IMG/VR virus record: IMGVR_UViG_3300037264_006630
Location: 1 to 64,000 of that record
Length of the DNA stretch: 64,000 nucleotides
Direction: 5' to 3' (one strand)
DNA from: a virus
The notes under the pieces were generated by a model. That model did not search any database and had not been told where the DNA came from. It saw nothing but the letters and a program-made list of their open reading frames with translations. A program made the position numbers and the translations under genes. Positions 3,777-61,472 of this stretch are shown one piece after another (within the stretch, counting starts at the first letter, position 1; every line of letters begins with the position of its first letter).

Positions 3777-3850
3777 GCTCGGGTAGCTCAGTTGGACAGA
3801 GCGGCGAGATCCTAACTCGCAGGCCGTCGGTTCGATCCCGGCTCCGAGCG
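3777..3850 (+). tRNA. tRNA-Arg (CCU)
   Basis: 74-nt cloverleaf. Acceptor GCTCGGG pairs with TCCGAGC (one G:U), D-stem GCTC/GAGC, anticodon stem GCGAG/CTCGC with loop ATCCTAA (U33, anticodon CCU, decoding AGG), T-arm GTCGG-TTCGATC-CCGGC, discriminator G73. CCA is not encoded. AGG is rare in this very GC-rich coding style. Confidence 0.93.
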
Positions 3851-15078: not shown

Positions 15079-15279
15079 GCGAAAACACGGGGGAAGACAA
15101 AGGCCAGGCGGCCGAAGCCGCTGAAGGACGACTTGATCCGCTTTCGGGTCACGTCCGAGGAGAAGACGGGGCTGGAGGGGGCCGCGACCAGGGAGGGGAT
15201 GGACCTCTCGACGTGGATCCGACGGCTGGCACTGCAAGCTGCCGGCTTGCTTCCTGGCGCCTCGGACATTCACCGATGA
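15076..15279 (+). CDS. ribbon-helix-helix regulator, 67 aa
   Basis: Lys/Arg-rich N-terminus, then DLIRFRVTSEEKTGLEG and a second helix (MDLSTWIRRLALQAAG): the RHH/Arc-type fold. Its stop overlaps the ATG of the R-M gene (ATGA), so the two are translationally coupled. It may repress its own promoter and set methylase/nuclease dosage. It resembles the minus-strand RHH at 17860. Confidence 0.8.
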   Translation: MAKTRGKTKARRPKPLKDDLIRFRVTSEEKTGLEGAATREGMDLSTWIRRLALQAAGLLPGASDIHR

Positions 15280-17849
15280 GGGCGGTTTCGGAGGCGGAGA
15301 CCGTCATCAAGCGCATCCTTCCTTATCTGGCCCGTCGCGGGTACGACATCGAGAAGGATCTGAGCTTTGAAGACCCCGTTGGCATGACAGCCACCGCCAA
15401 GAGTGGCTTCATTGACATCACGGTTCATTGCCAGCGCACCAGCCCCATCTTTCTCATCGAGGCCAAGCGGGACGGCACGAAGATTACCGTGAAGCACAGA
15501 GAGCAGGCGCTGGAATACGGAAAAGGCATTGGCGTCTTACTCGTGGCCGTCACGAACGGAAAGTCTTTCGAGTTGCACAATGCGACGACGAGAAAGCCGC
15601 TGTTCCTCAATGGGGCCGCGATGGACCGCATTCCGTCACGCAAGGACCTGCTTAGCGAGGTGCTCAAGCAACTCAAGCGAGATCCCGCCATCGATCGAAT
15701 TACGATTAGTGCGGACCGCTCGTTGCCCTACCGGCCTGGACTGCCGCTCTCGAAGCTCAATCACCTCATCAAGCAGTGTCATAACTCGATCCGGAAGATT
15801 GAGAAGAACGAAGAACATGCCTTCGCTGACTTCAGCAAGTTCATGTTCTTGAAGCTGTTGGAAGAGAAGTGGGACCAAGAGCAGGAGGTGCCTCCATACA
15901 GTTTTACTTTCCACGAGCTGGCCGCGACGCCGAGTGGGAAAGGAGATCGCGTTCGGGCAGCCATTAAGAGCATGATCGGCACGATTCAGAGCATCACGCG
16001 CTACGGTGACGTTCTAGCCGACCCGATTAGGCTGACCAAGGATGCGTCCTACCAAAGCATCGTTCGTCTCATCGCATCCGTCTCGTTCACCGACTGCGAC
16101 CTGGACTCAAAGGGGGCGGCCTTTGAGTATTTCGTCAGGGCAACCCTCAAGGGGAAGAAGCTCGGCCAGTATTTCACACCCCGCCCGCTCGTGAAGTTGA
16201 TGCTCCATCTCGGCAGATGGGAGCAGATCGTCAATAGCCTGTCCACCGGCGGTGACTTCAAGGTTCTTGATCCAGCGTGTGGGACGTCGGGTTTCCTTGT
16301 TCTCGCGATGAATCACTGCTTGGATGAAATCGATCGTCGACTCGAAGCGAAGACTATCCACAAAAACACGGCGACCGCACTCAAGAAGCGTGTCCGAGAA
16401 GACGTGTTCTACGGAATCGACGCACATAACGGAGTTGCTTGCTCAGCCAAGATGAACATGATCGTCGCGGGGGATGGCTCTAACAACATTCGCTGTGCCG
16501 ACTCGCTCAATGAGCCACATCTGATCCCACCGTACAAGCGGCACGCCGACGGCAAGGAGTGCCCGGACGGCAAGGCGCATCTGATTCTAACAAATCCGCC
16601 GTTCGGGACATCTGAAGCTGAATCCTTGACGCCTGCCAGTGCGGCAACGTTCGCGATCCGTTCGGCGCGCGGCCAATCGCTCTTTATTCAGAAGATGATC
16701 CAATCAGCGCACGATGACAGCCTCATCGTGACTGTCATCGATGAGGGCGTGTTGAACACCGCGTCTTATCAGAGTTTGCGGGAACTAGTTCTGAAGTCCT
16801 GCCGCATCGAAATGGTGCTCCAGTTGCCGGGGACAACATTCAAGCCGAACAAGATCGACGTCCGATCGAGCGTCCTCGTGCTGCGGAAACGCGCAGAAAG
16901 TGACGAGGACGTCGCCGATGACTATCCGGTTACGTTCGCCGCCATCGACTCGATGGGCTACGAAGGATCGGGCGACGAAGTACGCGGCTTCGACTTGCAC
17001 CGCTTGATCGCAGAAATCAAGTCTATCGACGCCAGCAAGCTCACCGAGGCGCAGGTCACGACGGGCTACCACTGGGAAGCTTTCCGTACTAACTCGCAGA
17101 CGATCGCGACAGACAAGACGCGTCGCCTGGACGTGCGCTACTGGCACCCCAGCGTTCGTCTTCCGATCATGCAACTCCGCGGGCTCAAGGGCACGGTGTC
17201 GGTCAAGGAACTAAACAAGATCCCCACGCGCCGTGGCAAGAGCCCGCCATCGGCCGAGTACGTCACGCCACAAGAGGGACACGCGCTAGTCGTCAAAGCC
17301 GGTTCAAACATCTCGAAGACCGGCGAGTTGATCATCGGCGGTGACTACGTCGAGCGCCAAGTATACGAGGAGTATGCTATCGCTGGGCTCAACCTTGAGG
17401 ACGGCGATGTGCTCCTAGCGTCGACCGGTGAGTACGTGTTGGGTAAGTGCTGCGTCTTCCGCAACCAGATCGGAGATGGAGCGACACCAGGGATCGCCGA
17501 TGGTCACGTCGCAGTGATCCGAGTCGACCAAACGAAAGTTTATCCAGAGTACCTCTGCGACTACCTGCGGAGAGGGTTCGGTCACGATCAGATCGCCAGG
17601 ATCCTTACCGGGTCAACAGGGCTGATCGAGATCACTCCGGATGACGTTGACGGCGTGCTTGTTCCAAAATTGCCTTCGCTGGCCAAACAGAAAGCGCTTA
17701 GCGATAGCCTTCGGCACGGCGAACGCGTGGCGGCCGAGGTGATCGCGAAGGCCGCCGAAAAGCTGCGAGCGGACGAGCAACTGTTCCGCAACACCACCAT
17801 GCCGCCCGAGTTCAAGTTGCTAGGCTACCGCGTCATCGGCGGCGACTGA
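15276..17849 (+). CDS. single-chain restriction-methylation-specificity protein, 857 aa
   Basis: N-terminal nuclease-like domain of the HsdR-N/PD-(D/E)xK type: FID47..IE62AK64. Central N6-adenine methylase of HsdM type: GQYFTPRPL (about 297), motif I DPACGTSGF (332) and catalytic NPPFG (440). C-terminal part, about 610-857, resembles an HsdS target-recognition region (..GDVLLASTGEYVLGKC..DYLRRGF..SLAKQKAL..). No translocase helicase is present, so cleavage would be close to the site as in type IIG/BcgI-like enzymes, if the nuclease is active. Base composition is lower in GC than its surroundings. Confidence 0.85.
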   Translation: MRAVSEAETVIKRILPYLARRGYDIEKDLSFEDPVGMTATAKSGFIDITVHCQRTSPIFLIEAKRDGTKITVKHREQALEYGKGIGVLLVAVTNGKSFELHNATTRKPLFLNGAAMDRIPSRKDLLSEVLKQLKRDPAIDRITISADRSLPYRPGLPLSKLNHLIKQCHNSIRKIEKNEEHAFADFSKFMFLKLLEEKWDQEQEVPPYSFTFHELAATPSGKGDRVRAAIKSMIGTIQSITRYGDVLADPIRLTKDASYQSIVRLIASVSFTDCDLDSKGAAFEYFVRATLKGKKLGQYFTPRPLVKLMLHLGRWEQIVNSLSTGGDFKVLDPACGTSGFLVLAMNHCLDEIDRRLEAKTIHKNTATALKKRVREDVFYGIDAHNGVACSAKMNMIVAGDGSNNIRCADSLNEPHLIPPYKRHADGKECPDGKAHLILTNPPFGTSEAESLTPASAATFAIRSARGQSLFIQKMIQSAHDDSLIVTVIDEGVLNTASYQSLRELVLKSCRIEMVLQLPGTTFKPNKIDVRSSVLVLRKRAESDEDVADDYPVTFAAIDSMGYEGSGDEVRGFDLHRLIAEIKSIDASKLTEAQVTTGYHWEAFRTNSQTIATDKTRRLDVRYWHPSVRLPIMQLRGLKGTVSVKELNKIPTRRGKSPPSAEYVTPQEGHALVVKAGSNISKTGELIIGGDYVERQVYEEYAIAGLNLEDGDVLLASTGEYVLGKCCVFRNQIGDGATPGIADGHVAVIRVDQTKVYPEYLCDYLRRGFGHDQIARILTGSTGLIEITPDDVDGVLVPKLPSLAKQKALSDSLRHGERVAAEVIAKAAEKLRADEQLFRNTTMPPEFKLLGYRVIGGD

Positions 17850-18140: not shown

Positions 18141-18179
18141 GGTTGAACGTCAGACCGTGGTGTTAATACATCAGACATG
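18141..18179 (+). promoter_or_regulatory. transposase promoter, leaderless geometry
   Basis: TAATAC at 18164-18169 followed by 7 bp (atcagac) and ATG 18177. The -35 is weak: GGTTGA at 18141 with a 17-bp spacer or TTGAAC at 18143 with 15 bp. Faces the minus-strand RHH promoter. Confidence 0.55.
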
Positions 18180-19403
18180 AACACGGCGACGATCACGGAT
18201 GCGCGGCAGGTTCGGGGGCTCGCGTTGGCGAAGGGGAAGGCGAAGAAGATCAAGCCGGTGGCCGGGTCGACGTGGCTGGTGCCGTCGGCCTCGGGCGGTG
18301 GTGGCGGGTACGTGGTCGACGTCGACAAGGGGACCTGCTCTTGCCCGGACGCGGAGGAGCGCGGGGTCCGCTGCAAGCACCAGTTCGCGGTTGCCTACGT
18401 CCGGGCTGAGATCGCGATGCCCGACGGCGCGGTGCTGGTGGCGGAGACGCGGGTCACGTACGCGCAGCCGTGCTGGTCCGCGTACCACAAGGCGCAGGTG
18501 ATGGAGAAAGACACGGTCGAGCTGCTCCTGCGCGGGCTGTGCGACGGCATCGTGGAGCCGCAGGCGAAGAAGACGGGGCGCCCGCCGATGCCGCTGGCGG
18601 CGCTGGTGTTCGCGGCGACCCTCAAGGTCTTCTCGACGATGAGCGGGCGCCGCGCGTCGAGCGACATCCGGGCGGCCAAGGAGCGCGGGCGCCTCGGGAC
18701 GGTGGCGCACTACAACACGATCTCGGAGCACCTCGCGCGCCCCGATCTGGCGCCGCTCCTCAAGGTGCTGGTGACCGAGTCGGCCCTGCCGCTCAAGGCG
18801 ATCGAGTCGCAGTTTGCCGTCGATGCCACCGGCTTCGCGACCAACACCTACGCGCGCTGGTACGACGAGAAGTACGGCGAGGAGAAGCGCGCGGCGCGGT
18901 GGATCAAGGCGCACGCGATGGTCGGGACGAAGACGCATGTGATCACCGCCGTCGAGGTGACGGAGTCGAACGTCCATGACTCGCCGATGCTGGCGCCCGT
19001 CCTCGCGACGACGGCGGCCAACTTCAACATGCGTGAGGTGTCGGCCGACAAGGCGTACCTCGCGAACGACAACCTGACGGCGATCGAAGCGGTCGGCGCT
19101 GTGCCCTACATCCCGTTCAAGATCAACTCGCAGGGCAACGGGTCCGAGGCGTGGCGCCGCCTCTGGCACCTCTACAGCCTCAACCGGGAGGACTTCCTCG
19201 GGCACTACCACCGGCGGTCGAACGTCGAGAGCGTGTTCTCGTCGGTCAAGCGCAAGTTTGGCGCGGCCGTGCGCGCGAAGCTGCCTACGGCGCAGGTCAA
19301 CGAAGTTCTCCTCAAGTGCATCGCCCACAACCTGTCTATGCTGGTCCACTCGATCCACGAGCTGGGCGTGGATCCGAAGTTCTGGCGCGGGGGTGGGCAG
19401 TGA
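18177..19403 (+). CDS. DDE transposase with N-terminal SWIM zinc finger, 408 aa
   Basis: SWIM motif C54-x-C56-x9-C66-x-H68 (CSCPDAEERGVRCKH). The IS4/IS5-type catalytic core has VDATGF (D216), SADKAY (D291) and NVESVFSSVKRKFG (E351), with the usual Y/R residues after the Glu. All three catalytic acids are present, so it should be active. SWIM fingers bind DNA or protein. Its stop overlaps the start of the next gene (GTGA). Confidence 0.88.
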   Translation: MNTATITDARQVRGLALAKGKAKKIKPVAGSTWLVPSASGGGGGYVVDVDKGTCSCPDAEERGVRCKHQFAVAYVRAEIAMPDGAVLVAETRVTYAQPCWSAYHKAQVMEKDTVELLLRGLCDGIVEPQAKKTGRPPMPLAALVFAATLKVFSTMSGRRASSDIRAAKERGRLGTVAHYNTISEHLARPDLAPLLKVLVTESALPLKAIESQFAVDATGFATNTYARWYDEKYGEEKRAARWIKAHAMVGTKTHVITAVEVTESNVHDSPMLAPVLATTAANFNMREVSADKAYLANDNLTAIEAVGAVPYIPFKINSQGNGSEAWRRLWHLYSLNREDFLGHYHRRSNVESVFSSVKRKFGAAVRAKLPTAQVNEVLLKCIAHNLSMLVHSIHELGVDPKFWRGGGQ

Positions 19404-19744
19404 GCGCGCGGCGGCGGCGGGACGAGCCGGGCCGCGTGGCCTACGCGGTGGGTTGCGACTCCGACCTGACCGCGGAGGAGCAAGCGCACGCGCGCACGGC
19501 GCTCCGGTTCCTGCGTTCGCGGTGCGGCACATGGGAAGCGGTGGCACGGGTGCTGCGCTTCAACGGCACGCACATCGTGGACGCCAACACGGGGCGCGCG
19601 TCGATCACCGCGAGCATGGCGGTGCGGATCGCGCGCGTGGTCAAGGCGCCGATCGACGACGTGCTGACCGGCCGCTTCCCGGCGCCGAACACCTGCCCGC
19701 ACTGCGGCCACGTCGGACCCACCGAGGAGATCGCAGCGTCGTGA
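19400..19744 (+). CDS. HTH protein with C-terminal zinc knuckle, 114 aa
   Basis: Residues about 30-85 (ALRFLRSRCGTWEAVARVLRF..ASITASMAVRIARVVKAPIDDVLTG in the same frame) resemble an XRE/Cro-type helix-turn-helix; the tail has CPHCGH. GTGA-coupled to the transposase before and to the FHA gene after, so it probably works with transposition. Confidence 0.7.
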   Translation: MSARRRRDEPGRVAYAVGCDSDLTAEEQAHARTALRFLRSRCGTWEAVARVLRFNGTHIVDANTGRASITASMAVRIARVVKAPIDDVLTGRFPAPNTCPHCGHVGPTEEIAAS

Positions 19745-21558
19745 TCGTCGCCCTCCGCTTCCACGGGACGGGCTTGCCAGCGGTCGCGCTGTTGCCGGGG
19801 AAGCGCGTCTTCACCATCGGCTCGGGCACCGCCGATGTTGTCGTGCCGCGCATCGTCGCCAGCGAGGTTGCTGACGTTCACGCGATCGTCGAGCGGACCG
19901 CCGACGGGCTGCGGTTGACCGAGTCCGGGGGCAACGGCATCTACCGCAACGCGTGGACGCCCGCGGTGACCGAGTTGCTACTTCACGCGGGGCAGGTCGG
20001 GTGGGTCGGGTCCGTGGCCGTGCAGGCGCTTGACGATCGGCTCGTGACCCTACGGCCGCGCGTCGCGTGGAACCTCGGGCTCGACGCGCACGCCGCGGTC
20101 GACGACGCCCTGGCCGTGATCGCCACCCGGGCGCCGCTCCTCTTGCTCGGCCCGCGCGGCACCGAAGGCGAGAGGCTGGCCCGCGCCATTCACGAGGCCA
20201 CGGACGGGGCGCGCGCGTTCGTGGAGACCGACCGCCCGATCCCGCACCTTGAAGACGCGACCCTGTACGTGGACCTCGACGGCCTCACCCGGCTCCCAGC
20301 CTCGCGCGCCGCCGAGCTGCTCCGGCCGTGGCGCGACCTCCGGGTCATCTTCAACGCCACGTCCGAGCGGCATGCCAGCGGCCTCTTGGACAGCCACCTT
20401 GCCAGCATCCACACGCTCACCCTGCCGCCCTTGGCCACCCGCCGCGCCGAAGTCCCCCGACTCCTCGGCGCCCTCTGGCACCAGCTCGGCTCCGGTTGCG
20501 ACCCCGCCACCGACCTTTCCCCCGCTGCTCTCCTCAGCCTCACCGCCCACGACTGGCCCGGCAACCTCGCCAGCCTGCGCGACAACGCCCGCCGCATCCT
20601 TGCCTATCACCACGCCGGTGGGCTCCGGCCCGCTGCGCGTACCCTTGGCATCAAGCACCAGACCCTCGCAGGTCACTTCAACCGGATCGGGTTCCCCATG
20701 CTGGACGAGATCCAGAGAGAGGAGCGGCTCGACCGGAAGCACCGGGCGCCGCGCGCTGACCGCAAACCTCCGAGGCTGACCGCAAACCCACGGTCACTGC
20801 GGTGTTTGCGGGCAAAGCCGCTGGCCTCTGTGCCCGAAGTGCGGCGCGGACGAGGCGTACTCGCTCGCCATCCCCGCCGACCCGGCGGTCGATCTGCGGT
20901 GCTACGTCTGCGGCCCCATCAAGGTCGGCGAGAGCATCGGCCTGTTCGGCAACTGGACCCACGGCAAGGTGCCCGAGCTCCTCCAGGCCATCGAGGCGTT
21001 CGGCTCGGCCCGGTACGCGTCCGGTCGAGCTCGCGGGACTGCGCGAGAGCCTGCGGGACAGCACCGACCCCGAAGACCGGAACACGGTCGACTTCGCGAC
21101 CATGGCGCTCTCCCCCAGCGAGTACACCGACGCGGATGGCAACCCGATCCGCTCGCCGCGAGGTGGCAGCAAGTTCCGGCGCTCCGAGTGCCGCGACTAC
21201 TGCGCCCGCGTCATCGCCCGCCGCGACGGGCTGCCCATGCCGCCGGACCAGAGCGGCCTCGCCATGGAGGTCTACTCGTACGGGCGGCTGGTCTGGTCGC
21301 GGTGGGACCGCCCACGTCTCCGACTGCGGCTGCGCGATCTGCGCCTCCGACCAGCTCGAGCGGGTCTGTCGCCGGGGCGCCAGCACTCCGGCCGACCAAC
21401 TCCCGCTCTTCAGCCTCGCAAACGACGCCGAAGCCTCGATCATCCACCGCCGCATGCGCGACCTCGCACCCGGCCGGGAGTACGGCGTCTGCGTCGCCTT
21501 TGGCGACACCGTGCAGGGGCTCTACCGGGACGGCGGCTTCATCGGACCGATGAAGTGA
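19741..21558 (+). CDS. FHA + AAA-like + Fis-type HTH protein, reading frame runs out of the transposon
   Basis: Residues about 15-95 form an FHA phosphothreonine-binding domain (FTIGSGTADVVVP..ADVHAIVE..). Residues 110-280 resemble the sigma-54 activator ATPase, but Walker A is degenerate (GPRGTEGERLA, no Lys) and the GAFTGA loop is missing. Residues 285-330 are a Fis-like HTH (AARTLGIKHQTLAGHF). The element contains no stop for this frame: it crosses the right inverted repeat and ends in host sequence at 21558. It cannot be a normal sigma-54 activator. Coupling to the transposase suggests a target-selection or regulatory role. Confidence 0.7.
   Translation: MIVALRFHGTGLPAVALLPGKRVFTIGSGTADVVVPRIVASEVADVHAIVERTADGLRLTESGGNGIYRNAWTPAVTELLLHAGQVGWVGSVAVQALDDRLVTLRPRVAWNLGLDAHAAVDDALAVIATRAPLLLLGPRGTEGERLARAIHEATDGARAFVETDRPIPHLEDATLYVDLDGLTRLPASRAAELLRPWRDLRVIFNATSERHASGLLDSHLASIHTLTLPPLATRRAEVPRLLGALWHQLGSGCDPATDLSPAALLSLTAHDWPGNLASLRDNARRILAYHHAGGLRPAARTLGIKHQTLAGHFNRIGFPMLDEIQREERLDRKHRAPRADRKPPRLTANPRSLRCLRAKPLASVPEVRRGRGVLARHPRRPGGRSAVLRLRPHQGRREHRPVRQLDPRQGARAPPGHRGVRLGPVRVRSSSRDCARACGTAPTPKTGTRSTSRPWRSPPASTPTRMATRSARREVAASSGAPSAATTAPASSPAATGCPCRRTRAASPWRSTRTGGWSGRGGTAHVSDCGCAICASDQLERVCRRGASTPADQLPLFSLANDAEASIIHRRMRDLAPGREYGVCVAFGDTVQGLYRDGGFIGPMK
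20755..20786 (+). repeat. right subterminal repeats, 2 x GCTGACCGCAAA
   Basis: Copies at 20755-20766 and 20775-20786, same orientation as the left-end pair and 20 bp apart. They lie in the FHA gene's 3' end. Confidence 0.8.
20804..20819 (-). repeat. right terminal inverted repeat
   Basis: GTTTGCGGGCAAAGCC, exact inverse complement of 14769-14784. Confidence 0.9.
20820..20828 (+). repeat. right 9-bp target-site duplication GCTGGCCTC
   Basis: Identical to 14760-14768 and adjacent to the right inverted repeat. Confidence 0.85.
20820..21558 (+). pseudogene. 3' remains of the interrupted zinc-ribbon gene(s), in three frames
   Basis: The first stretch reads RWPLCPKCGADEAYSLA..DLRCYVCG (a four-Cys zinc ribbon) up to about 21025. 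Coding quality then moves to another frame (VELAGLRESLRD..TVDFATMALSPSEYTD..) and at about 21305 to a third (HVSDCGCAICASDQLERV..YRDGGFIGPMK, stop 21558). Neither later part has a usable start codon at its beginning. This is either decay after the insertion or base-count errors in the assembly. Confidence 0.6.
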
Positions 21559-21649
21559 GCGCTGGCGTACGGTTGAACCAGCACCTCGCGCAGACCTCAC
21601 CCTCTGGGTACTAAATGCGGTCTACGAACCGACCGGAGACCGCCGCCCC

Positions 21650-21949
21650 ATGCAAGCCTCCCTGTCCGCCAGCGTCGCCGAGCTCGAGCAGTCCAACGTT
21701 CGACTCCAGGCCGAGCTCGCCGCCGAACGCGAGGAGAACGAGCGCCTGCGCGCGCTCATCGAGCCGTGTGACGAGTGCCCCGACGAGTTCGCCGACGCCA
21801 TCGCCACGGCCAGCGCCGTCGTCGACCGGCTATCCGACTCCCAGAGGGCCCGCCACATGACGGTTGAGGAGGCGCTGGAGCTGCTCGGGAAGGTGGTACC
21901 GCCGGACTCCGACAGCACAGGCGAACCGGGGCCGGATAGCACAGCGTGA
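21650..21949 (+). CDS. coiled-coil protein, 99 aa
   Basis: Residues 5-42 form a strong leucine-heptad coiled coil (VAELEQSNVRLQAELAAERE), then CDECPDEF and an Asp/Ser-rich tail. The 3' end of the gene already contains the first copies of the repeat array that follows. A -10-like TACTAA at 21606 is the only promoter hint. Confidence 0.7.
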   Translation: MQASLSASVAELEQSNVRLQAELAAEREENERLRALIEPCDECPDEFADAIATASAVVDRLSDSQRARHMTVEEALELLGKVVPPDSDSTGEPGPDSTA

Positions 21950-22086
21950 TGACACAGCAGATAGCACAGCGATACGTCCAACAAACACAAGCAGTGTCGA
22001 TGGCATACGAGATGTGCGTGAAGTCGGATAGCACAGCAAGCAGCACAGGCCGACAGCACAGCAAAATACCGGCCGGAGAGCACAGC
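21911..22086 (+). repeat. iteron-like array, 8 copies of GATAGCACAGC-like 11-mer
   Basis: Copies start at 21911, 21935, 21948, 21960, then 22027, 22040, 22052 and 22076. The core AGCACAG is kept in seven; one reads GACACAG. Two groups of four are separated by a less GC-rich 56-bp centre. Spacing inside groups is about 12, 13 or 24 bp. This pattern suits binding sites for a partition, replication-initiation or regulatory protein. The interval between genes is otherwise empty. Confidence 0.75.
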
Positions 22087-22088
22087 CC

Positions 22089-22414
22089 ATGCGCGTGATC
22101 GGTTCCGACGTGAAGGTCGTCATGATGATCGCCGGACAGCCGGTCGAGTACCTCCCCCTGAGGTCCAACGGCTTGTCCGTGCCCAGGGGCATCCACGGGT
22201 CAAGAAGGGCGACGTGGATGCCGTGTTCGATGCGGTGGCTCGCTTCGCGAAGCGCGCGGAGCGCTGGCACGCCTCCCGGGGCTGGTGCTTCCCCCAGCGG
22301 GTGTGGCGCCACCGCCGGAACCAGCGAGCGGAAGCCGCTGCGGCGCGTCGGGCCGGGCATGCGCTCGCCCGCTCCGAGCGACGTTGCCAGCGGCACGGAA
22401 TGGAATCCGCATAA
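22089..22414 (+). pseudogene. hypothetical protein gene with one-base frame change
   Basis: ATG 22089 directly after the repeat array reads MRVIGSDVKVVMMIAGQPV..SVPRGIHG, then coding shifts near 22197 to the frame KKGDVDAVFDAVARFAKRAE..CQRHGMESA ending at 22414. One extra G in cacgggtcaag would join them into about 108 residues. An assembly deletion in the G run is the simplest reading; a recoding site is possible. Confidence 0.55.
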
Positions 22415-22455
22415 AGAGACCGATCCGCCAATCGGTTGTTCGGTTCACTCGGACC

Positions 22456-22644
22456 GTGGCGTCTTACCTGCGGGTGACCCGAGAGCGCCCCGACTGCCTC
22501 CGAGCCAGCCTCTACACGGCCGCGCTCCTGGACGGCATCCTCACCGCGAACCACCGCCGCATCCTCGCCACCCACGTCGAGGCGTGCCGCCGGTGCAAGC
22601 GCGTGCTTCTCGTCTGCTGGTTCGAGAACCTGCTCACCACGTAG
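22456..22644 (+). CDS. minimal zinc-binding anti-sigma-like (zf-HC2) protein, 62 aa
   Basis: GTG start. LLDGILTANHRRILATHVEA-CRRC fits the zf-HC2/ZAS consensus (LDGxL..R..L..H-x3-C-x2-C), the fold by which anti-sigma factors hold sigma-70-type factors. There is no membrane segment, so it would be cytosolic. A phage could use it to redirect host RNA polymerase. No sigma factor gene is in the window. Start codon is uncertain. Confidence 0.6.
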   Translation: MASYLRVTRERPDCLRASLYTAALLDGILTANHRRILATHVEACRRCKRVLLVCWFENLLTT

Positions 22645-22677
22645 CCTCGCCCGCCGACCGCATGCGACAACGCCGGC

Positions 22678-22992
22678 ATGGCCGAGATCAAGACCGAGCC
22701 GCGGCGCCTGGTCGACCTGAACCCGCAGTGGATCCGGAACCACGGCACGGACGAGGTCCACGGCGTTGCCTTCGACTGCCCCTGCGGCGCCAAGGAGACC
22801 TGCCCAGTACGTGGCCGGTGCCTCGTCCCCACCAAGACCTGCCTGACCGGCGCGCCCGTCACCGCCGACAGCGCCGCCATGGGCTGGACGGTGACCGGGA
22901 CCAACTTCGACGACCTCACGCTCTCGCCGTCGGTCAACTACCGCGACCACTGGCACGGCCACGTCACGAACGGCGAGCTCACCTCGGTCTAA
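22678..22992 (+). CDS. phage hypothetical protein (DUF6527-like), 104 aa
   Basis: RLVDLNPQWI.., FDCPCGAKE..CPVRGRC.. and LSPSVNYRDHWHGHVTNGE match from memory a family common in phages in which the Cys residues bind zinc and the WHG..xNG block ends the domain. Function unknown. The upstream sequence catgcgacaacgccggcATG resembles that before the gene at 23032. Confidence 0.65.
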   Translation: MAEIKTEPRRLVDLNPQWIRNHGTDEVHGVAFDCPCGAKETCPVRGRCLVPTKTCLTGAPVTADSAAMGWTVTGTNFDDLTLSPSVNYRDHWHGHVTNGELTSV

Positions 22993-23031
22993 GCGCTTGC
23001 TCCGGGCACCGCCCGTATGTGACAACGGCCC

Positions 23032-23496
23032 ATGGTCGACAGCGCCGCCCTCGTCTTGCCGCCCCAGCGCATCTGCATCATCGGCGGCCCTCACACCGGC
23101 AAGACCACGCTCGCCGCCCAACTCGGCGGTGGGGACCACGGCTACGCTCTCATCTCGGCAGACGACCACATCGGCATGGAGTGGAGCGCCGCCAGCCGGC
23201 ACATCGCCGACCTCATGCGGGACACCGAGCCGCCCTGGCTTGCCGAGGGCGTCGCCCTGGTCCGGGCCATCCGCAAGCGTCAGCGGGACGACAAGGACCC
23301 CAAGCCCTGCGACCTCGTCATCCTCCTACGCCAGGTCTGGACCCCTCTCACCCTGGACGGCCAGCGCTCGATGGCCGCCGGTCACAAGACCATCTGGGGG
23401 AGCATCGCCTGGGAGGTGGAGAAGAAGGCGGGCATCCCGGTGCTCCGAGACCCGACGCCCGAGCAGCTCGCCGCGGCGCTGCGACCGGCTGCTTGA
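23032..23496 (+). CDS. P-loop kinase/NTPase, 154 aa
   Basis: Walker A GGPHTGKTT (residues 18-26) with a following LISADDH and a lid-like region (AIRKRQRDDK); LVILLRQVW could be the Walker B strand. Size and order fit small nucleotide or protein kinases of phages. Substrate unknown. Its TGA stop is part of the -35 element at 23493. Confidence 0.7.
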   Translation: MVDSAALVLPPQRICIIGGPHTGKTTLAAQLGGGDHGYALISADDHIGMEWSAASRHIADLMRDTEPPWLAEGVALVRAIRKRQRDDKDPKPCDLVILLRQVWTPLTLDGQRSMAAGHKTIWGSIAWEVEKKAGIPVLRDPTPEQLAAALRPAA

Positions 23497-23533
23497 CACC
23501 GGGCTCCACTTCGCGCATAGCTTCAAGCGCACG
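23493..23533 (+). promoter_or_regulatory. degenerate leaderless promoter with ACG at the start position
   Basis: TTGACA 23493-23498, cgcgca, TAGCTT 23517-23522 (spacer 18), then caagcgc (23523-23530 region) and ACGAAC where other copies have ATGAAC. The start codon appears lost by a T-to-C change; the downstream frame has poor coding quality. Confidence 0.45.
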
Positions 23534-23624
23534 AACCGAGAGCAGGACCAGCACGACGATGTGATTCCACGCCCAGGACACCGCGACCCGCAAGCGCTAC
23601 GTCACCCCACGTCCTGGAGTGCTT

Positions 23625-24152
23625 ATGTCCCCGTCCTCTTGGTCTCCTAACCACAAGAGCAGCCTCGGGCTGCGTCCGGCCATCGCCACTGCTACGCCTC
23701 GGCTGCCCGCTAGCGCCGATTGGTGGTGTAGCCCGCCCGTTACGCCGCCCGAGCCGGCCCACCTCGACTACGCTCGACGCCACCTCGACGCCTTGCTGGC
23801 TGCCCCGGTCGCCAACGGGGTTGAGGTCTCGAAGCGAGACCACTTGGTCCAGCGAGTGAGGGTCTGGATTGCCGCCGCCGAAAGCTTGCTCGAGGAGCGG
23901 ATGCACTCCATCACGGCCAGTCGGAACGAAGCGAACCTCCGCCGCGCGCTCCGGCTGGCCATCCGATCCTTGGTCGCCTCTGGTGACACGACGACCCTGG
24001 AGAAGATCGGCGGCGGTCACGTCACCCCAGCCTTCTACGCCATCGGTGGAGAGGACGGCTACTTCGGACGACTGACAACCTTGCGCGCTGATCCTCCGTG
24101 CCGACCAACCTCGCGGTTGGAAGCACAAACCATGCCCTATTGTACAGGGTAA
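23625..24152 (+). CDS. hypothetical protein, 175 aa
   Basis: Helical protein with good coding bias from about residue 35 (YARRHLDALLAAP..LVQRVRVWIAAAESLLEERM). The N-terminal start is uncertain: ATG 23625 is used, a GTG lies at 23619, and translation might begin further in. The last 20 codons are less biased. No family recognised. Confidence 0.55.
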   Translation: MSPSSWSPNHKSSLGLRPAIATATPRLPASADWWCSPPVTPPEPAHLDYARRHLDALLAAPVANGVEVSKRDHLVQRVRVWIAAAESLLEERMHSITASRNEANLRRALRLAIRSLVASGDTTTLEKIGGGHVTPAFYAIGGEDGYFGRLTTLRADPPCRPTSRLEAQTMPYCTG

Positions 24153-24158
24153 TTCTGG

Positions 24159-24196
24159 TTGACGCCCGACGGCCAATGTCTGAGAGTGGCCGCATG
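24159..24196 (+). promoter_or_regulatory. leaderless promoter, weak -10
   Basis: TTGACG 24159-24164, then GAGAGT at 24182-24187 (17-bp spacer), 6 bp, ATG 24194. Opens a 15-codon leader frame coupled to the next gene. Confidence 0.5.
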
Positions 24197-24241
24197 GAGC
24201 ACGACCTGAACGGCGTCGTCCGGACCCGCGTGCCGGAGTGA
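24194..24241 (+). CDS. 15-aa leader mini-cistron
   Basis: MEHDLNGVVRTRVPE; the TGA (24239-24241) overlaps the GTG start of the next gene (GTGA). Same arrangement as 5749-5775: a leaderless start opens a short frame that hands ribosomes to the first full gene. Confidence 0.5.
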   Translation: MEHDLNGVVRTRVPE

Positions 24242-24642
24242 GTATCACGCCATGGCTGGTCCATCGCCCTAACGACGTGCTCGAGGTCCCCGCCGCTACC
24301 ATCCGCGACGCGCTGCTCCACGCCGCAGACCTCGTCGCCAACGACGGCTGGGAGCCATGGCCTGGCGGGGTGGCGCTGGGCGGGCCGAGGAACCTGCACG
24401 TCCTCATCGGCGACGCCTGCCGCGCCTTCCAGGTGAAGGCCGGTGAGGTGCAGCTCTGGATGGCGGCTCACGCCGCGGTCAGCGCCATCATCAAGTCCGA
24501 CCTCGCGACCGACCCCGACGTCTTGCCGCGTTCGCTCGACGAGTTCGAGTGGCGGCATGACCGCACGGCCGAGGATATCGCCGAGCTTGTGCGCCGGGCG
24601 GCGCGGCTGGTCGACCCCTCGCCGCCGAGGGACGACGAATGA
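24238..24642 (+). CDS. hypothetical protein, 134 aa
   Basis: GTGA-coupled to the leader frame. Helical, mildly acidic; contains VPAATIRDALLHAADLVAND and a C-terminal HDRTAEDIAELVRRAARL. No family recognised. Confidence 0.7.
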   Translation: MSITPWLVHRPNDVLEVPAATIRDALLHAADLVANDGWEPWPGGVALGGPRNLHVLIGDACRAFQVKAGEVQLWMAAHAAVSAIIKSDLATDPDVLPRSLDEFEWRHDRTAEDIAELVRRAARLVDPSPPRDDE

Positions 24643-29274: not shown

Positions 29275-30717
29275 ATGGCCCCCATCAAGAAGCTCTACTC
29301 CTTCACCGACCATCCGGATCACGAGGCGCAGCTCGCCGAGTGGGCGAAGCGCTGGATCGACAACGCCTTCTCGACCAAGCCGATGGACGAGGACGACAAG
29401 GCCGCGATGGTCGTCGCCGTCAACGGCATGTACGCCGCCGCCGGCCTGCCCCCGCCCGAGGTCATCTCCTTCGCCGACGGCCCGGTCACTGGCCAGATCG
29501 CCGCCGGCGTCTCGGCCGGTATCTACTGGATCCGCGACAACCCCGACAAGCACGTCGAGATCTTCGGCCGCGTGGTCACCGAGGCCGAGACGAAGGCCGC
29601 TGCGGAGATCGCGACCAAGTACGCGACAGCGCATGCGCTCGGCCTCCCCGTCGAGCCTCTTCCGGCGGCCACCGAGAACGCCACCTGGAACGCCACCTGG
29701 AACGCCACCAGGAACGCCACCAAGAACGCCACCTGGAACGCCACCAGGAACGCCACCAAGAACGCCACCTGGAACGCCACCTGGAACGCCACCTGGAACG
29801 CCACCTGGAACGCCACCTGGAACGCCACCTGGAACGCCACCTGGAACGCCACCGAGAACGCCACCTGGAACGCCACCTGGAACGCCACCAGGAACGCCAC
29901 CAGGAACGCCACCGAAGGCGGCGATCTGCTCGCGATCGTTCGGTATCTCGTCATGTGTACGAACGGCGCGTGGTCGATGCGCGACGGCGGCAACCAGTGG
30001 TCGTACGACATCGCGTTCATGTCGTTCTTCCGGCACATCGCGAAGCTCGAGTTGCCCGAGTTCGAGGCGTTCAAGCACTACGAGAACGCGGCCGTCCACG
30101 GGAGCGTGCGGTGGATGCACCCCAAGTTCGTCATCGTGGCGGACCGGCCGCTTGAGCTGCACGTGGACGAGCGCAACCGGCCCCACCGGGTCGGCGGACC
30201 GTTCTGCCGCTGGTCGGACGGGATCGAGCTCTACTACGTGGCCGGGGTGCAGGTCCCGAAGAAGCTCGCGCTGGGGGACTTCACCGCACAGGAGGTGATG
30301 GACCAGAGCAACGCCGAGGTGCGCCGGATCATGGTCGACGTGTACGGCCGGGACCGCTGGCTTCGCGACCTCAACCCGACCGTGCTGCACGAGGACAAGG
30401 ACCAGTACGGCCGGCCACGGCGCCTGCTCCGGGTCGACCTGCGCGACGACGAGCCGGTGGTCGTCATCGAACTGGTCAACTCGACGCCCGAGCCGCGCGA
30501 GGAGGAGGGCAAGCACGCCGAGCTCTGGCGCGGTCGCTACCGCGGCGAGCGCAACCGGGGCTTCAAGGTGTACCGCCTCCGGGTGGACGCCGATCTGCGG
30601 CCCCTGCCTCGGGAGGGGCGTCCGACCGGGCGCGGTCAGGAGCTGACCTGCCACAACGCCGTCGCCTCGCTGCACGCCATGCGCGGCGCCGACTACCACC
30701 CCGTCATCGAGACCTGA
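29275..30717 (+). CDS. DUF6745-like protein with 20-copy NAT-x tandem repeat, 480 aa
   Basis: Residues 1-130 and 220-480 look like the DUF6745 family: [23 protein letters not shown].., ..[13 protein letters not shown].. and [24 protein letters not shown]. Between them, residues 135-214 consist of N-A-T-(W/R/K/E) repeated 20 times. The repeat replaces a helical segment expected between the halves, where the family often carries W-rich short repeats. Possible role in protein-protein contact; repeat number may vary. Confidence 0.8.
29677..29916 (+). repeat. 20 x 12-bp tandem repeat (aacgccacc + tgg/agg/aag/gag/gaa)
   Basis: 240 bp, nearly perfect; only the fourth codon changes (Trp 12, Arg 4, Lys 2, Glu 2). 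The frame is preserved for any copy-number change. The same DNA read on the minus strand gives an open Gly-Gly-Val-Pro frame, an artefact of the repeat. Confidence 0.95.
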
Positions 30718-59742: not shown

Positions 59743-59752
59743 TCGGTTCTGG

Positions 59753-59825
59753 TACCACCTGCGGGACTCGAACCCGCACCACCCGGGTCTGAGCCGGGTA
59801 CCTCTACCAGTTGGGCTAAGGTGGC
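59753..59825 (-). tRNA. tRNA, anticodon CAG (Leu), short variable arm
   Basis: Read on the minus strand: acceptor GCCACCT/AGGTGGT, anticodon stem CCCGG/CCGGG with loop CTCAGAC (U33, CAG for codon CUG), T-arm GCGGG-TTCGAGT-CCCGC, A73. The D-stem has a C-A mismatch. The variable region is only 4 nt, whereas bacterial tRNA-Leu normally has a long arm. Confidence 0.8.
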
Positions 59826-59829
59826 GTCG

Positions 59830-59904
59830 TGTCGCGGGCGGGGGTCGAACCCGCACTGTCCGGTCCCTCAGACCGGTGCCTCCTGCCAATTGGGCTACCG
59901 CGAC
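59830..59904 (-). tRNA. tRNA, anticodon GAG (Leu), short variable arm
   Basis: Perfect acceptor GTCGCGG/CCGCGAC, anticodon stem CCGGT/ACCGG, loop CTGAGGG (GAG for CUC/CUU), variable ACAGT (5 nt), T-arm GCGGG-TTCGACC-CCCGC, A73. Same D-arm style as its neighbours. Confidence 0.85.
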
Positions 59905-59908
59905 GAGG

Positions 59909-59980
59909 TGCCGGCGAGTGGACTCGAACCACCAACTCGCGATTTTTGGGATCGCAGCCTCTGCCTTGGGCTACGCCGGC
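59909..59980 (-). tRNA. tRNA, anticodon CAA (Leu), C33 and short variable arm
   Basis: Perfect acceptor GCCGGCG/CGCCGGC, stem GCGAT/ATCGC, loop CCCAAAA: position 33 is C instead of the near-universal U, and the anticodon reads CAA (codon UUG). Variable GAGTT, T-arm GGTGG-TTCGAGT-CCACT, A73. Confidence 0.75.
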
Positions 59981-60068
59981 CAGCTCGTCAGACGCACGAA
60001 CGACAACTCACGCCGATAGGCGGAGAAGTCGAAGTCGTGCGGAGAGCAATCGGCGGGTCACGTCACCC

Positions 60069-60097
60069 TGGTAGCACCGCGGCGCCGCCGTCGTCAA
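60069..60097 (-). promoter_or_regulatory. promoter of the Leu tRNA cluster
   Basis: Minus strand: TTGACG (60097-60092), 17 bp, CTACCA (60074-60069), about 90 nt before the CAA tRNA. It begins one base after the Ser(GCU) tRNA's discriminator. Confidence 0.55.
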
Positions 60098-60098
60098 G

Positions 60099-60181
60099 CG
60101 GAAGGTGTAGGACTCGAACCCGCCCCACGAGGGGGCCACCGAGCTAGCAACCCGGGTCGCGCCCATGCGCGCTCACCTTCC
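60099..60181 (-). tRNA. tRNA-Ser (GCU), divergent
   Basis: Acceptor GGAAGGT/ACCTTCC with G73, anticodon stem CCGGG/CTCGG, loop TTGCTAG (U33, GCU for AGC/AGU), long variable arm CCCC-TCGT-GGGG as expected for Ser. The D-arm is irregular (positions 8-9 are GA) and the T-stem has a C-A mismatch, so it may be weak or degenerate. Confidence 0.65.
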
Positions 60182-61398: not shown

Positions 61399-61472
61399 TG
61401 CGGGGTAGAGCAGCCTGGTCGCTCATCGGGCCCATAACCCGAAGATCGGTGGTTCAAATCCACTCCCCGCAA
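61399..61472 (+). tRNA. tRNA-Met (CAU), initiator-like, with C33
   Basis: Acceptor TGCGGGG/CCCCGCA, D-arm GAGC/GCTC, anticodon stem TCGGG/CCCGA with the three G:C pairs of initiators, loop CCCATAA (C33, CAU), T-arm GGTGG-TTCAAAT-CCACT, A73. The first pair is T1-A72, not the mismatch of bacterial initiators. CCA not encoded. Confidence 0.88.

What the first reader, a model, noticed from the sequence alone, without database searches (positions are those of the whole stretch)
21911..22086. Eight-copy iteron-like array between two genes
GATAGCACAGC-like 11-mers start at 21911, 21935, 21948, 21960, 22027, 22040, 22052 and 22076: two groups of four separated by a less GC-rich centre, with 12-13 or 24-bp spacing. 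Arrays like this bind replication initiators, partition proteins or repressors. None of the other intergenic regions has one.
Basis: partly seen in the sequence, partly recalled or inferred. Interest (0 to 1): 0.68.

Follow-up and report, generated by a model that had tools for sequence, protein, structure and literature searches.

The report
Second initiator-binding array in large phage
The eight short repeats are real, and the same repeat occurs in only one other cluster in this 185-kb phage genome, inside the gene for its DNA-replication starter protein, so the phage appears to carry two widely separated docking arrays for one replication initiator; this layout is known from phage SPP1 but is not seen in this phage's smaller relatives.

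Summary
The array is real: eight same-strand copies of (G/A)A(T/C)AGCACAG(C/G), two groups of four around an AT-rich centre (one start is 22039, not 22040; the first two copies lie in the end of an ORF). The window is part of a circular 185-kb phage genome. The same iteron occurs in one other cluster only: 14 copies at record 167272-167553, inside a gene whose product has a lambda-O-like C-terminal domain and is followed by DnaB. Those copies sit in four blocks that alternate between two reading frames, so they are conserved as DNA. An AT-rich, GATC-rich stretch follows them. Two syntenic relatives (88 and 92 kb) have the same layout in the same gene with different iterons, which identifies an intragenic origin. 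Neither has a second array. The window array lies in a ~36-kb block of G000 with no gene homologues in them. Best reading: a second, remote binding array for the phage's own initiator, ~39 kb from the main origin, comparable to SPP1 oriL/oriR. Binding by the same protein is strongly inferred. Whether it is a second origin, a fork barrier or a copy-control site is open. It has an AT-rich centre but lacks the GATC-rich element of the main origin.

The parts
21911..21921 (+). iteron 1, GACAGCACAGG (in the 3' end of ORF 21650-21949)
21935..21945 (+). iteron 2, GATAGCACAGC (in the 3' end of ORF 21650-21949)
21948..21958 (+). iteron 3, degenerate, GATGACACAGC
21960..21970 (+). iteron 4, GATAGCACAGC
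21971..22026 (.). AT-rich centre (50% GC against 69%), candidate unwinding region; no GATC cluster
22027..22037 (+). iteron 5, GATAGCACAGC
22039..22049 (+). iteron 6, AGCAGCACAGG; with iteron 5 shares an exact 20-mer (AGCACAGCAAGCAGCACAGG) with array 2
22052..22062 (+). iteron 7, GACAGCACAGC
22076..22086 (+). iteron 8, GAGAGCACAGC
21650..21949 (+). small ORF (99 aa, coiled-coil-like) whose last 13 codons carry iterons 1-2; no confident family
22089..22199 (+). start of the ORF just downstream of the array; coding seems to continue in another frame from about 22203 (possible frameshift), no family

Best explanation
The array (A1) is a remote, secondary binding site for the phage's own lambda-O-like replication initiator. 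That initiator is encoded 145 kb downstream in the record, which is 39 kb away around the circle, and its primary origin (A2) is a 14-iteron array plus an AT/GATC-rich unwinding stretch inside its own gene. Inferred mechanism: the initiator's N-terminal winged-helix domain binds the 12-bp-phased direct repeats at A2, melts the adjacent DUE and, through its O-like C-terminal domain, loads the phage DnaB encoded by the next gene. The same protein fills the eight iterons of A1. At A1 it most likely works like SPP1 oriR, as a late or secondary origin and/or a protein barrier that stalls the fork and helps the switch from theta to recombination-dependent (sigma) replication; the phage carries RecE/RecT-like proteins next to the initiator. 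Shown here: both arrays, their sequence identity and exclusivity, DNA-level conservation of A2 in two reading frames, the O-like C-terminal domain, the DnaB neighbour, conservation of the intragenic layout in two relatives, and AT-rich stretches at both sites. Inferred: binding by the initiator to either array, and the role of A1.
For: The record is circular with a 127-bp terminal repeat. The only other cluster of the iteron is 167272-167553, inside ORF 166939-168108. A weight matrix made from A1 alone ranks A2 copies among the top record-wide hits, and the reverse holds. A1 and A2 share an exact 20-mer. A2 blocks lie in frames 0,1,0,1 of the gene, so DNA rather than protein is conserved. The gene product matches O-like, DnaD-like and replisome-organizer PHROGs (E to 2e-10) and lambda O itself at its C-terminal domain (hhalign E 2.4e-7, 38% identity over 64 columns). 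The next gene is DnaB (Pfam PF00772 and PF03796). Iterons between the N- and C-terminal domains are where lambda has them. Relatives G001 (92 kb) and G002 (88 kb) keep initiator, DnaB and RecET order and have their own iterons at the same place (CCGGACATTAAA, three copies at 12 bp; TGGACAGTTT, four copies) plus an AGATC-rich stretch near the record maximum for GATC, with 60-bp GC minima in the lowest 0.02-0.08%. Helix-stability minima at A1 and A2 are both unusual (60-bp windows, p 0.0125 and 0.014). Known precedent: SPP1 gp38 binds direct repeats at oriL, inside gene 38, and at distant intergenic oriR (PMC6316719, PMC3485210). RecE/RecT-like neighbours.
Against: No binding data. A1 has no GATC cluster (at most one GATC per 150 bp, against five at A2 and ten in each relative), so it may not be a complete origin. 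The relatives show no second array, so the dual layout is seen in one genome only. GC skew shows no origin-type turn at A1. The N-terminal DNA-binding domain of the initiator was assigned from position and pattern only; no family model reached significance for it. The record is a metagenome assembly without reads to check.
Confidence: 0.6

Rival explanations
1. A1 binds the same initiator but is not an origin or barrier. It is a control locus, like P1 incA, that titrates or pairs (handcuffs) initiator complexes to limit replication, or a distant helper site like P4 crr.
For: Same iteron as the origin, but the GATC-rich element that marks the origin in three phages is missing. Two blocks around a ~56-bp centre resemble, from my own knowledge, the layout of P4 crr.
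Against: The AT-rich centre is among the least stable stretches of the record, which a pure titration site would not need. Copy control by handcuffing is known for plasmids; no evidence here that this phage replicates as a plasmid.
Confidence: 0.22
2. A1 is an operator array for a phage transcription regulator of the flanking genes, and the similarity to A2 means that this regulator also represses the initiator gene.
For: The array ends 3 bp before an ATG at 22089; a weak repressor-like ORF lies at 19400-19744 (PHROG E 0.027).
Against: A2 lies in the middle of the initiator gene, not at its promoter. No sigma-70-like promoter is found near A1. The iterons are non-palindromic, phased at 12 bp and accompanied by AT-rich stretches, and relatives have the same intragenic arrangement with other sequences, as expected for origins.
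Confidence: 0.08
3. A1 is a partition site (parS/incC type) for the ParB-like protein of the phage.
For: A ParB-like protein with ParB_N and HTH_ParB domains is encoded at record 160947-162620.
Against: No inverted repeats in A1, whereas HTH_ParB proteins usually bind palindromes. The repeats recur inside the initiator gene. A separate 20-bp-class palindrome occurs near 99-105 kb. ParB-like homologues are kept in both relatives, which lack A1.
Confidence: 0.05
4. The array is chance, or a by-product of low-complexity coding sequence (Ser-Thr / Gln-His-Ser repeats).
For: 49 unrelated viral contigs hold three AGCACAG at 12-bp spacing, mostly in low-complexity protein repeats.
Against: A1 is mostly non-coding; A2 copies change reading frame between blocks; Markov simulations almost never give such a pair of clusters.
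Confidence: 0.03

Closest known systems
Bacillus phage SPP1 oriL/oriR with replisome organizer gp38 (G38P)
   Same: One initiator; one direct-repeat array inside the initiator gene and a second in a distant intergenic stretch (12-13 kb away on the circle), each with an AT-rich stretch; DnaB-type helicase encoded nearby; RecT/exonuclease partners (PMC6316719, PMC3485210).
   Different: Genome 4 times larger; 39 kb between arrays; no separate helicase-loader gene between initiator and DnaB here; other repeat sequence; the second array lacks the GATC-rich element; homology of the initiator to gp38 not tested (the SPP1 record could not be fetched).
Phage lambda O protein and ori-lambda
   Same: Iterons inside the initiator gene between its two domains, AT-rich stretch close by, homologous C-terminal domain.
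   Different: Lambda has four 18-bp iterons (inverted repeats, binding O dimers, PMC5043065) at a single place. Here there are 14 asymmetric direct iterons phased at 12 bp, plus a second array, and the gene is followed by DnaB instead of a P-type loader.
Plasmid/phage P1 oriR and incA; phage P4 ori and crr (own knowledge)
   Same: A second cluster of initiator sites away from the origin; direct iterons; GATC-rich repeats beside the iterons in P1 oriR.
   Different: Initiators of other families; distances of a few kb or less; no intragenic origin in an O-like gene.

Membership tests
lambda-type intragenic origin (ori-lambda), tested on A2 | initiator with O-type C-terminal domain | tested here: met
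   hhalign to lambda O E 2.4e-7; O-like PHROGs
lambda-type intragenic origin (ori-lambda), tested on A2 | iterons inside the initiator gene between its domains, AT-rich stretch close by | tested here: met
   same in relatives G001 and G002
lambda-type intragenic origin (ori-lambda), tested on A2 | palindromic 18-bp iterons | tested here: not met
   asymmetric 11-12-bp direct repeats, no inverted repeats among the iterons
lambda-type intragenic origin (ori-lambda), tested on A2 | single location of the iterons | tested here: not met
   two arrays, 39 kb apart; lambda control gives one
SPP1-type two-site origin system (oriL/oriR) | same repeats in the initiator gene and at one distant intergenic place | tested here: met
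SPP1-type two-site origin system (oriL/oriR) | AT-rich unwinding element at both sites | tested here: inconclusive
   both sites have unusually unstable stretches, but only A2 has the GATC-rich element conserved in relatives
SPP1-type two-site origin system (oriL/oriR) | one protein binds both sites | not testable with these tools
   needs purified protein
SPP1-type two-site origin system (oriL/oriR) | separate helicase-loader gene between initiator and DnaB | tested here: not met
   DnaB starts at the stop codon of the initiator gene
SPP1-type two-site origin system (oriL/oriR) | homology of the initiator to gp38 | not tested
   SPP1 record not in the collection under the accessions tried
ParB/parS partition site | inverted-repeat ParB sites | tested here: not met
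   no inverted repeats of 8 bp or more in the array

The most novel reading that the evidence does not exclude
A phage lineage with a ~90-kb genome and a single intragenic origin has grown to 185 kb, and with it enlarged its origin (14 iterons) and gained a second functional origin, or fork-control site, for the same initiator in newly acquired DNA: a two-origin, one-initiator replicon linked to genome doubling.
Probability: 0.25. Interest if true: 0.7.

Novelty: new variant of a known kind. Interest (0 to 1): 0.5.

Why it matters
Phage replication with two widely spaced initiator arrays has been worked out in few phages, SPP1 being the model I found. Here is an unrelated 185-kb phage where the two arrays can be recognised from sequence, while relatives of half the size keep only the intragenic one. 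That makes it testable whether a second array goes with larger genomes or with the switch to concatemer replication. The fast change of iteron sequence beside a conserved C-terminal domain and a conserved GATC-rich element also offers a simple rule for finding origins in uncultured phages.

Tried and rejected
(1) Close relatives by initiator, DnaB, TerL and major capsid single-protein scans of IMG/VR, and by TerL and transposase in GTDB genomes: none. Relatives came from another virion protein. (2) Tandem AGCACAG pattern in IMG/VR: 49 contigs, mostly low-complexity coding repeats; two lie in replication-initiator genes (L035, L047), but without a control motif I draw no conclusion. L069 looked similar in GC and size but is unrelated. 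(3) GC skew as a sign of an origin at the array: follows gene direction, no turn. (4) Partition (parS): no palindromes. (5) A1 as a decayed second initiator gene: DNA similarity to A2 covers only the iterons and neighbouring ORFs have no initiator family match. (6) Distant phages with O-like initiators as controls: lambda and Streptomyces phage PapayaSalad have intragenic repeats at one place only; Bacillus phage 031MP003 showed none by this method, and its first 8 kb were not fetched. (7) SPP1 as positive control: record not held under the accessions tried.

Full report
WHAT IS THERE. The eight repeats are present at the coordinates given, except that the sixth starts at 22039. All are on the + strand. 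The consensus is (G/A)A(T/C)AGCACAG(C/G); three copies are exact GATAGCACAGC. The halves have mirrored spacing (24,13,12 and 12,13,24 bp) around a 56-bp centre of 50% GC in a 69% GC genome. The first two copies are coding (end of ORF 21650-21949); the rest are intergenic. Seven of nine + strand AGCACAG in 64 kb fall in 166 bp and none is on the other strand. Over the record, AGCACAG and its shift GCACAGC are the only non-simple 7-mers with at least five copies in 300 bp at two places; 30 fifth-order Markov simulations gave one such 7-mer in total.

WHERE IT IS. The window is bases 1-64000 of an IMG/VR virus record of 184,943 bases. Its ends share an exact 127-bp repeat, so the assembly is circular (about 184.8 kb). 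Terminase, portal, major head and tape-measure matches make it a tailed phage. No similar DNA was found in the phage or plasmid collections.

THE SECOND ARRAY. The only other cluster of the iteron is at 167272-167553: 14 copies in four blocks, 12 bp apart within blocks. An exact 20-mer is shared with the window array. The cluster lies inside an ORF, 166939-168108 (389 aa). The blocks fall in reading frames 0, 1, 0, 1 of that ORF, so the same DNA is read as Ser-Thr in one block and as Gln-His-Ser in the next. Protein-level selection cannot keep that; DNA-level selection or recent duplication of a DNA element can.

THE GENE. Its product matches PHROG families for DnaD-like helicase loader, O-like initiator and replisome organizer (best E 2e-10), and lambda O over its C-terminal domain (hhalign E 2.4e-7, 38% identity over 64 columns). 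The next gene, starting on its stop codon, is a DnaB helicase. RecE- and RecT-like proteins and a ParB-like protein lie just upstream on the other strand. A clamp-like protein lies at 181 kb. In lambda the annotated iterons lie inside O between its two domains; the placement is the same here.

RELATIVES. Scans with a virion protein of this phage found relatives. G001 (92 kb) and G002 (88 kb) share the gene order of the virion, RecET, ParB, initiator and DnaB modules. Their matches wrap around the record ends, as in complete permuted genomes, although no end repeat was found. Two further relatives, G003 (89 kb) and G004 (79 kb), have 123- and 127-bp end repeats and so are circular, but carry other replication modules. 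The initiator genes of G001 and G002 hold their own repeats at the same place: CCGGACATTAAA three times at 12 bp, and TGGACAGTTT four times plus inverted copies. In both, the repeats adjoin an AGATC/AGATCT-rich stretch that ranks at the top of the record for GATC (10 per 150 bp, against a mean of about 1.9), with 60-bp GC minima in the lowest 0.02-0.08%. In G000 the stretch after A2 has five GATC per 150 bp (top 0.7%) and a GC minimum in the lowest 0.45%. The C-terminal domain is conserved while the N-terminal part and the iterons differ. This is the pattern expected if each initiator recognises its own intragenic iterons.

THE WINDOW ARRAY IN THAT LIGHT. The window array matches the intragenic iterons of its own genome, not those of the relatives. 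It lies 39.4 kb from A2 around the circle, in a block (about 0.3-36 kb) in which none of the predicted genes has a match in G001 or G002. Neither relative shows a second cluster of its own iteron. So the two-array state is seen only in the 185-kb genome. A1 has an AT-rich centre (p about 0.01 for stability) but no GATC cluster.

HOW IT PROBABLY WORKS. Shown: two clusters of one iteron, one of them in a conserved intragenic origin-like layout next to DnaB. Strongly inferred: the initiator binds both. Less certain: the role of A1. SPP1 is the best-understood precedent. Its initiator binds direct repeats at oriL inside its own gene and at oriR, a distant intergenic site; initiator bound at oriR is thought to stall the fork and start recombination-dependent replication (PMC6316719, PMC3485210). 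I take this role as most likely, with copy control or helper site as the main alternative because A1 lacks the GATC-rich element. My estimates: A1 bound by this initiator, about 0.85; oriR-like role given binding, about 0.65-0.7, which gives the 0.6 stated for the full explanation.

CONTROLS AND LIMITS. The same search in lambda and in Streptomyces phage PapayaSalad finds intragenic repeats at one place only. SPP1 itself could not be fetched. GC skew gives no support for an origin at A1. The record comes from a metagenome; reads were not available, and the host is unknown.

VERDICT. It is a variant of a known kind of system, not an SPP1 or lambda origin in the strict sense: iteron symmetry, single location (lambda) and helicase-loader gene (SPP1) were tested and not met.

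Noticed in passing
record G000:98977-105260 (L019 and L020): A strong palindrome, AGTGTCGTCG-N-CGACGACACT, occurs at 98977 and 103044, with a shorter copy at 105243: a candidate operator or parS-like site for a phage DNA-binding protein, perhaps the ParB-like one.
   Followed up: partly
window 29668-29913: A 12-bp unit (GCCACCTGGAAC) repeated about 20 times in frame inside ORF 29275-30717: a four-residue protein repeat.
   Followed up: no
window 18177-19403: Transposase-like ORF (DDE_Tnp_1 plus SWIM zinc finger) inside the phage genome, no close relative found in GTDB genomes.
   Followed up: partly
window 15276-17849: Large ORF joining an HsdR-type N-terminal domain with an N6-adenine methylase domain, type I restriction-like, in the lineage-specific block; it contains the most AT-rich spots of the record.
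   Followed up: no
window 19740-24280: Stretch of low coding density with ORFs that change frame (AAA-lid/Fis-like regulator remnant at 19747-20742; possible frameshift near 22203): decayed genes or assembly errors.
   Followed up: no
record G000 against G001-G004: G000 is about twice the size of its circular or near-complete relatives (79-92 kb) with a collinear virion module; the extra DNA lies mainly between the replication module and the terminase.
   Followed up: partly
L023:17126-18220 against L094 (G006): The clamp-like protein (DNA polymerase processivity factor) is 58% identical to one in an IMG/VR contig of 57% GC that shares nothing else with this phage: recent exchange between unrelated phages.
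   Followed up: partly
window 59750-60181: Cluster of three tRNA-Leu and one tRNA-Ser on the - strand, plus tRNA-Met at 61399 and tRNA-Arg at 3777.
   Followed up: no
L035:3381-3411, L047:8735-8765: Two unrelated phage contigs (GC 0.37 and 0.64) also carry AGCACAG three times at 12-bp spacing inside replication-initiator genes; whether this exceeds chance was not tested with a control motif.
   Followed up: no
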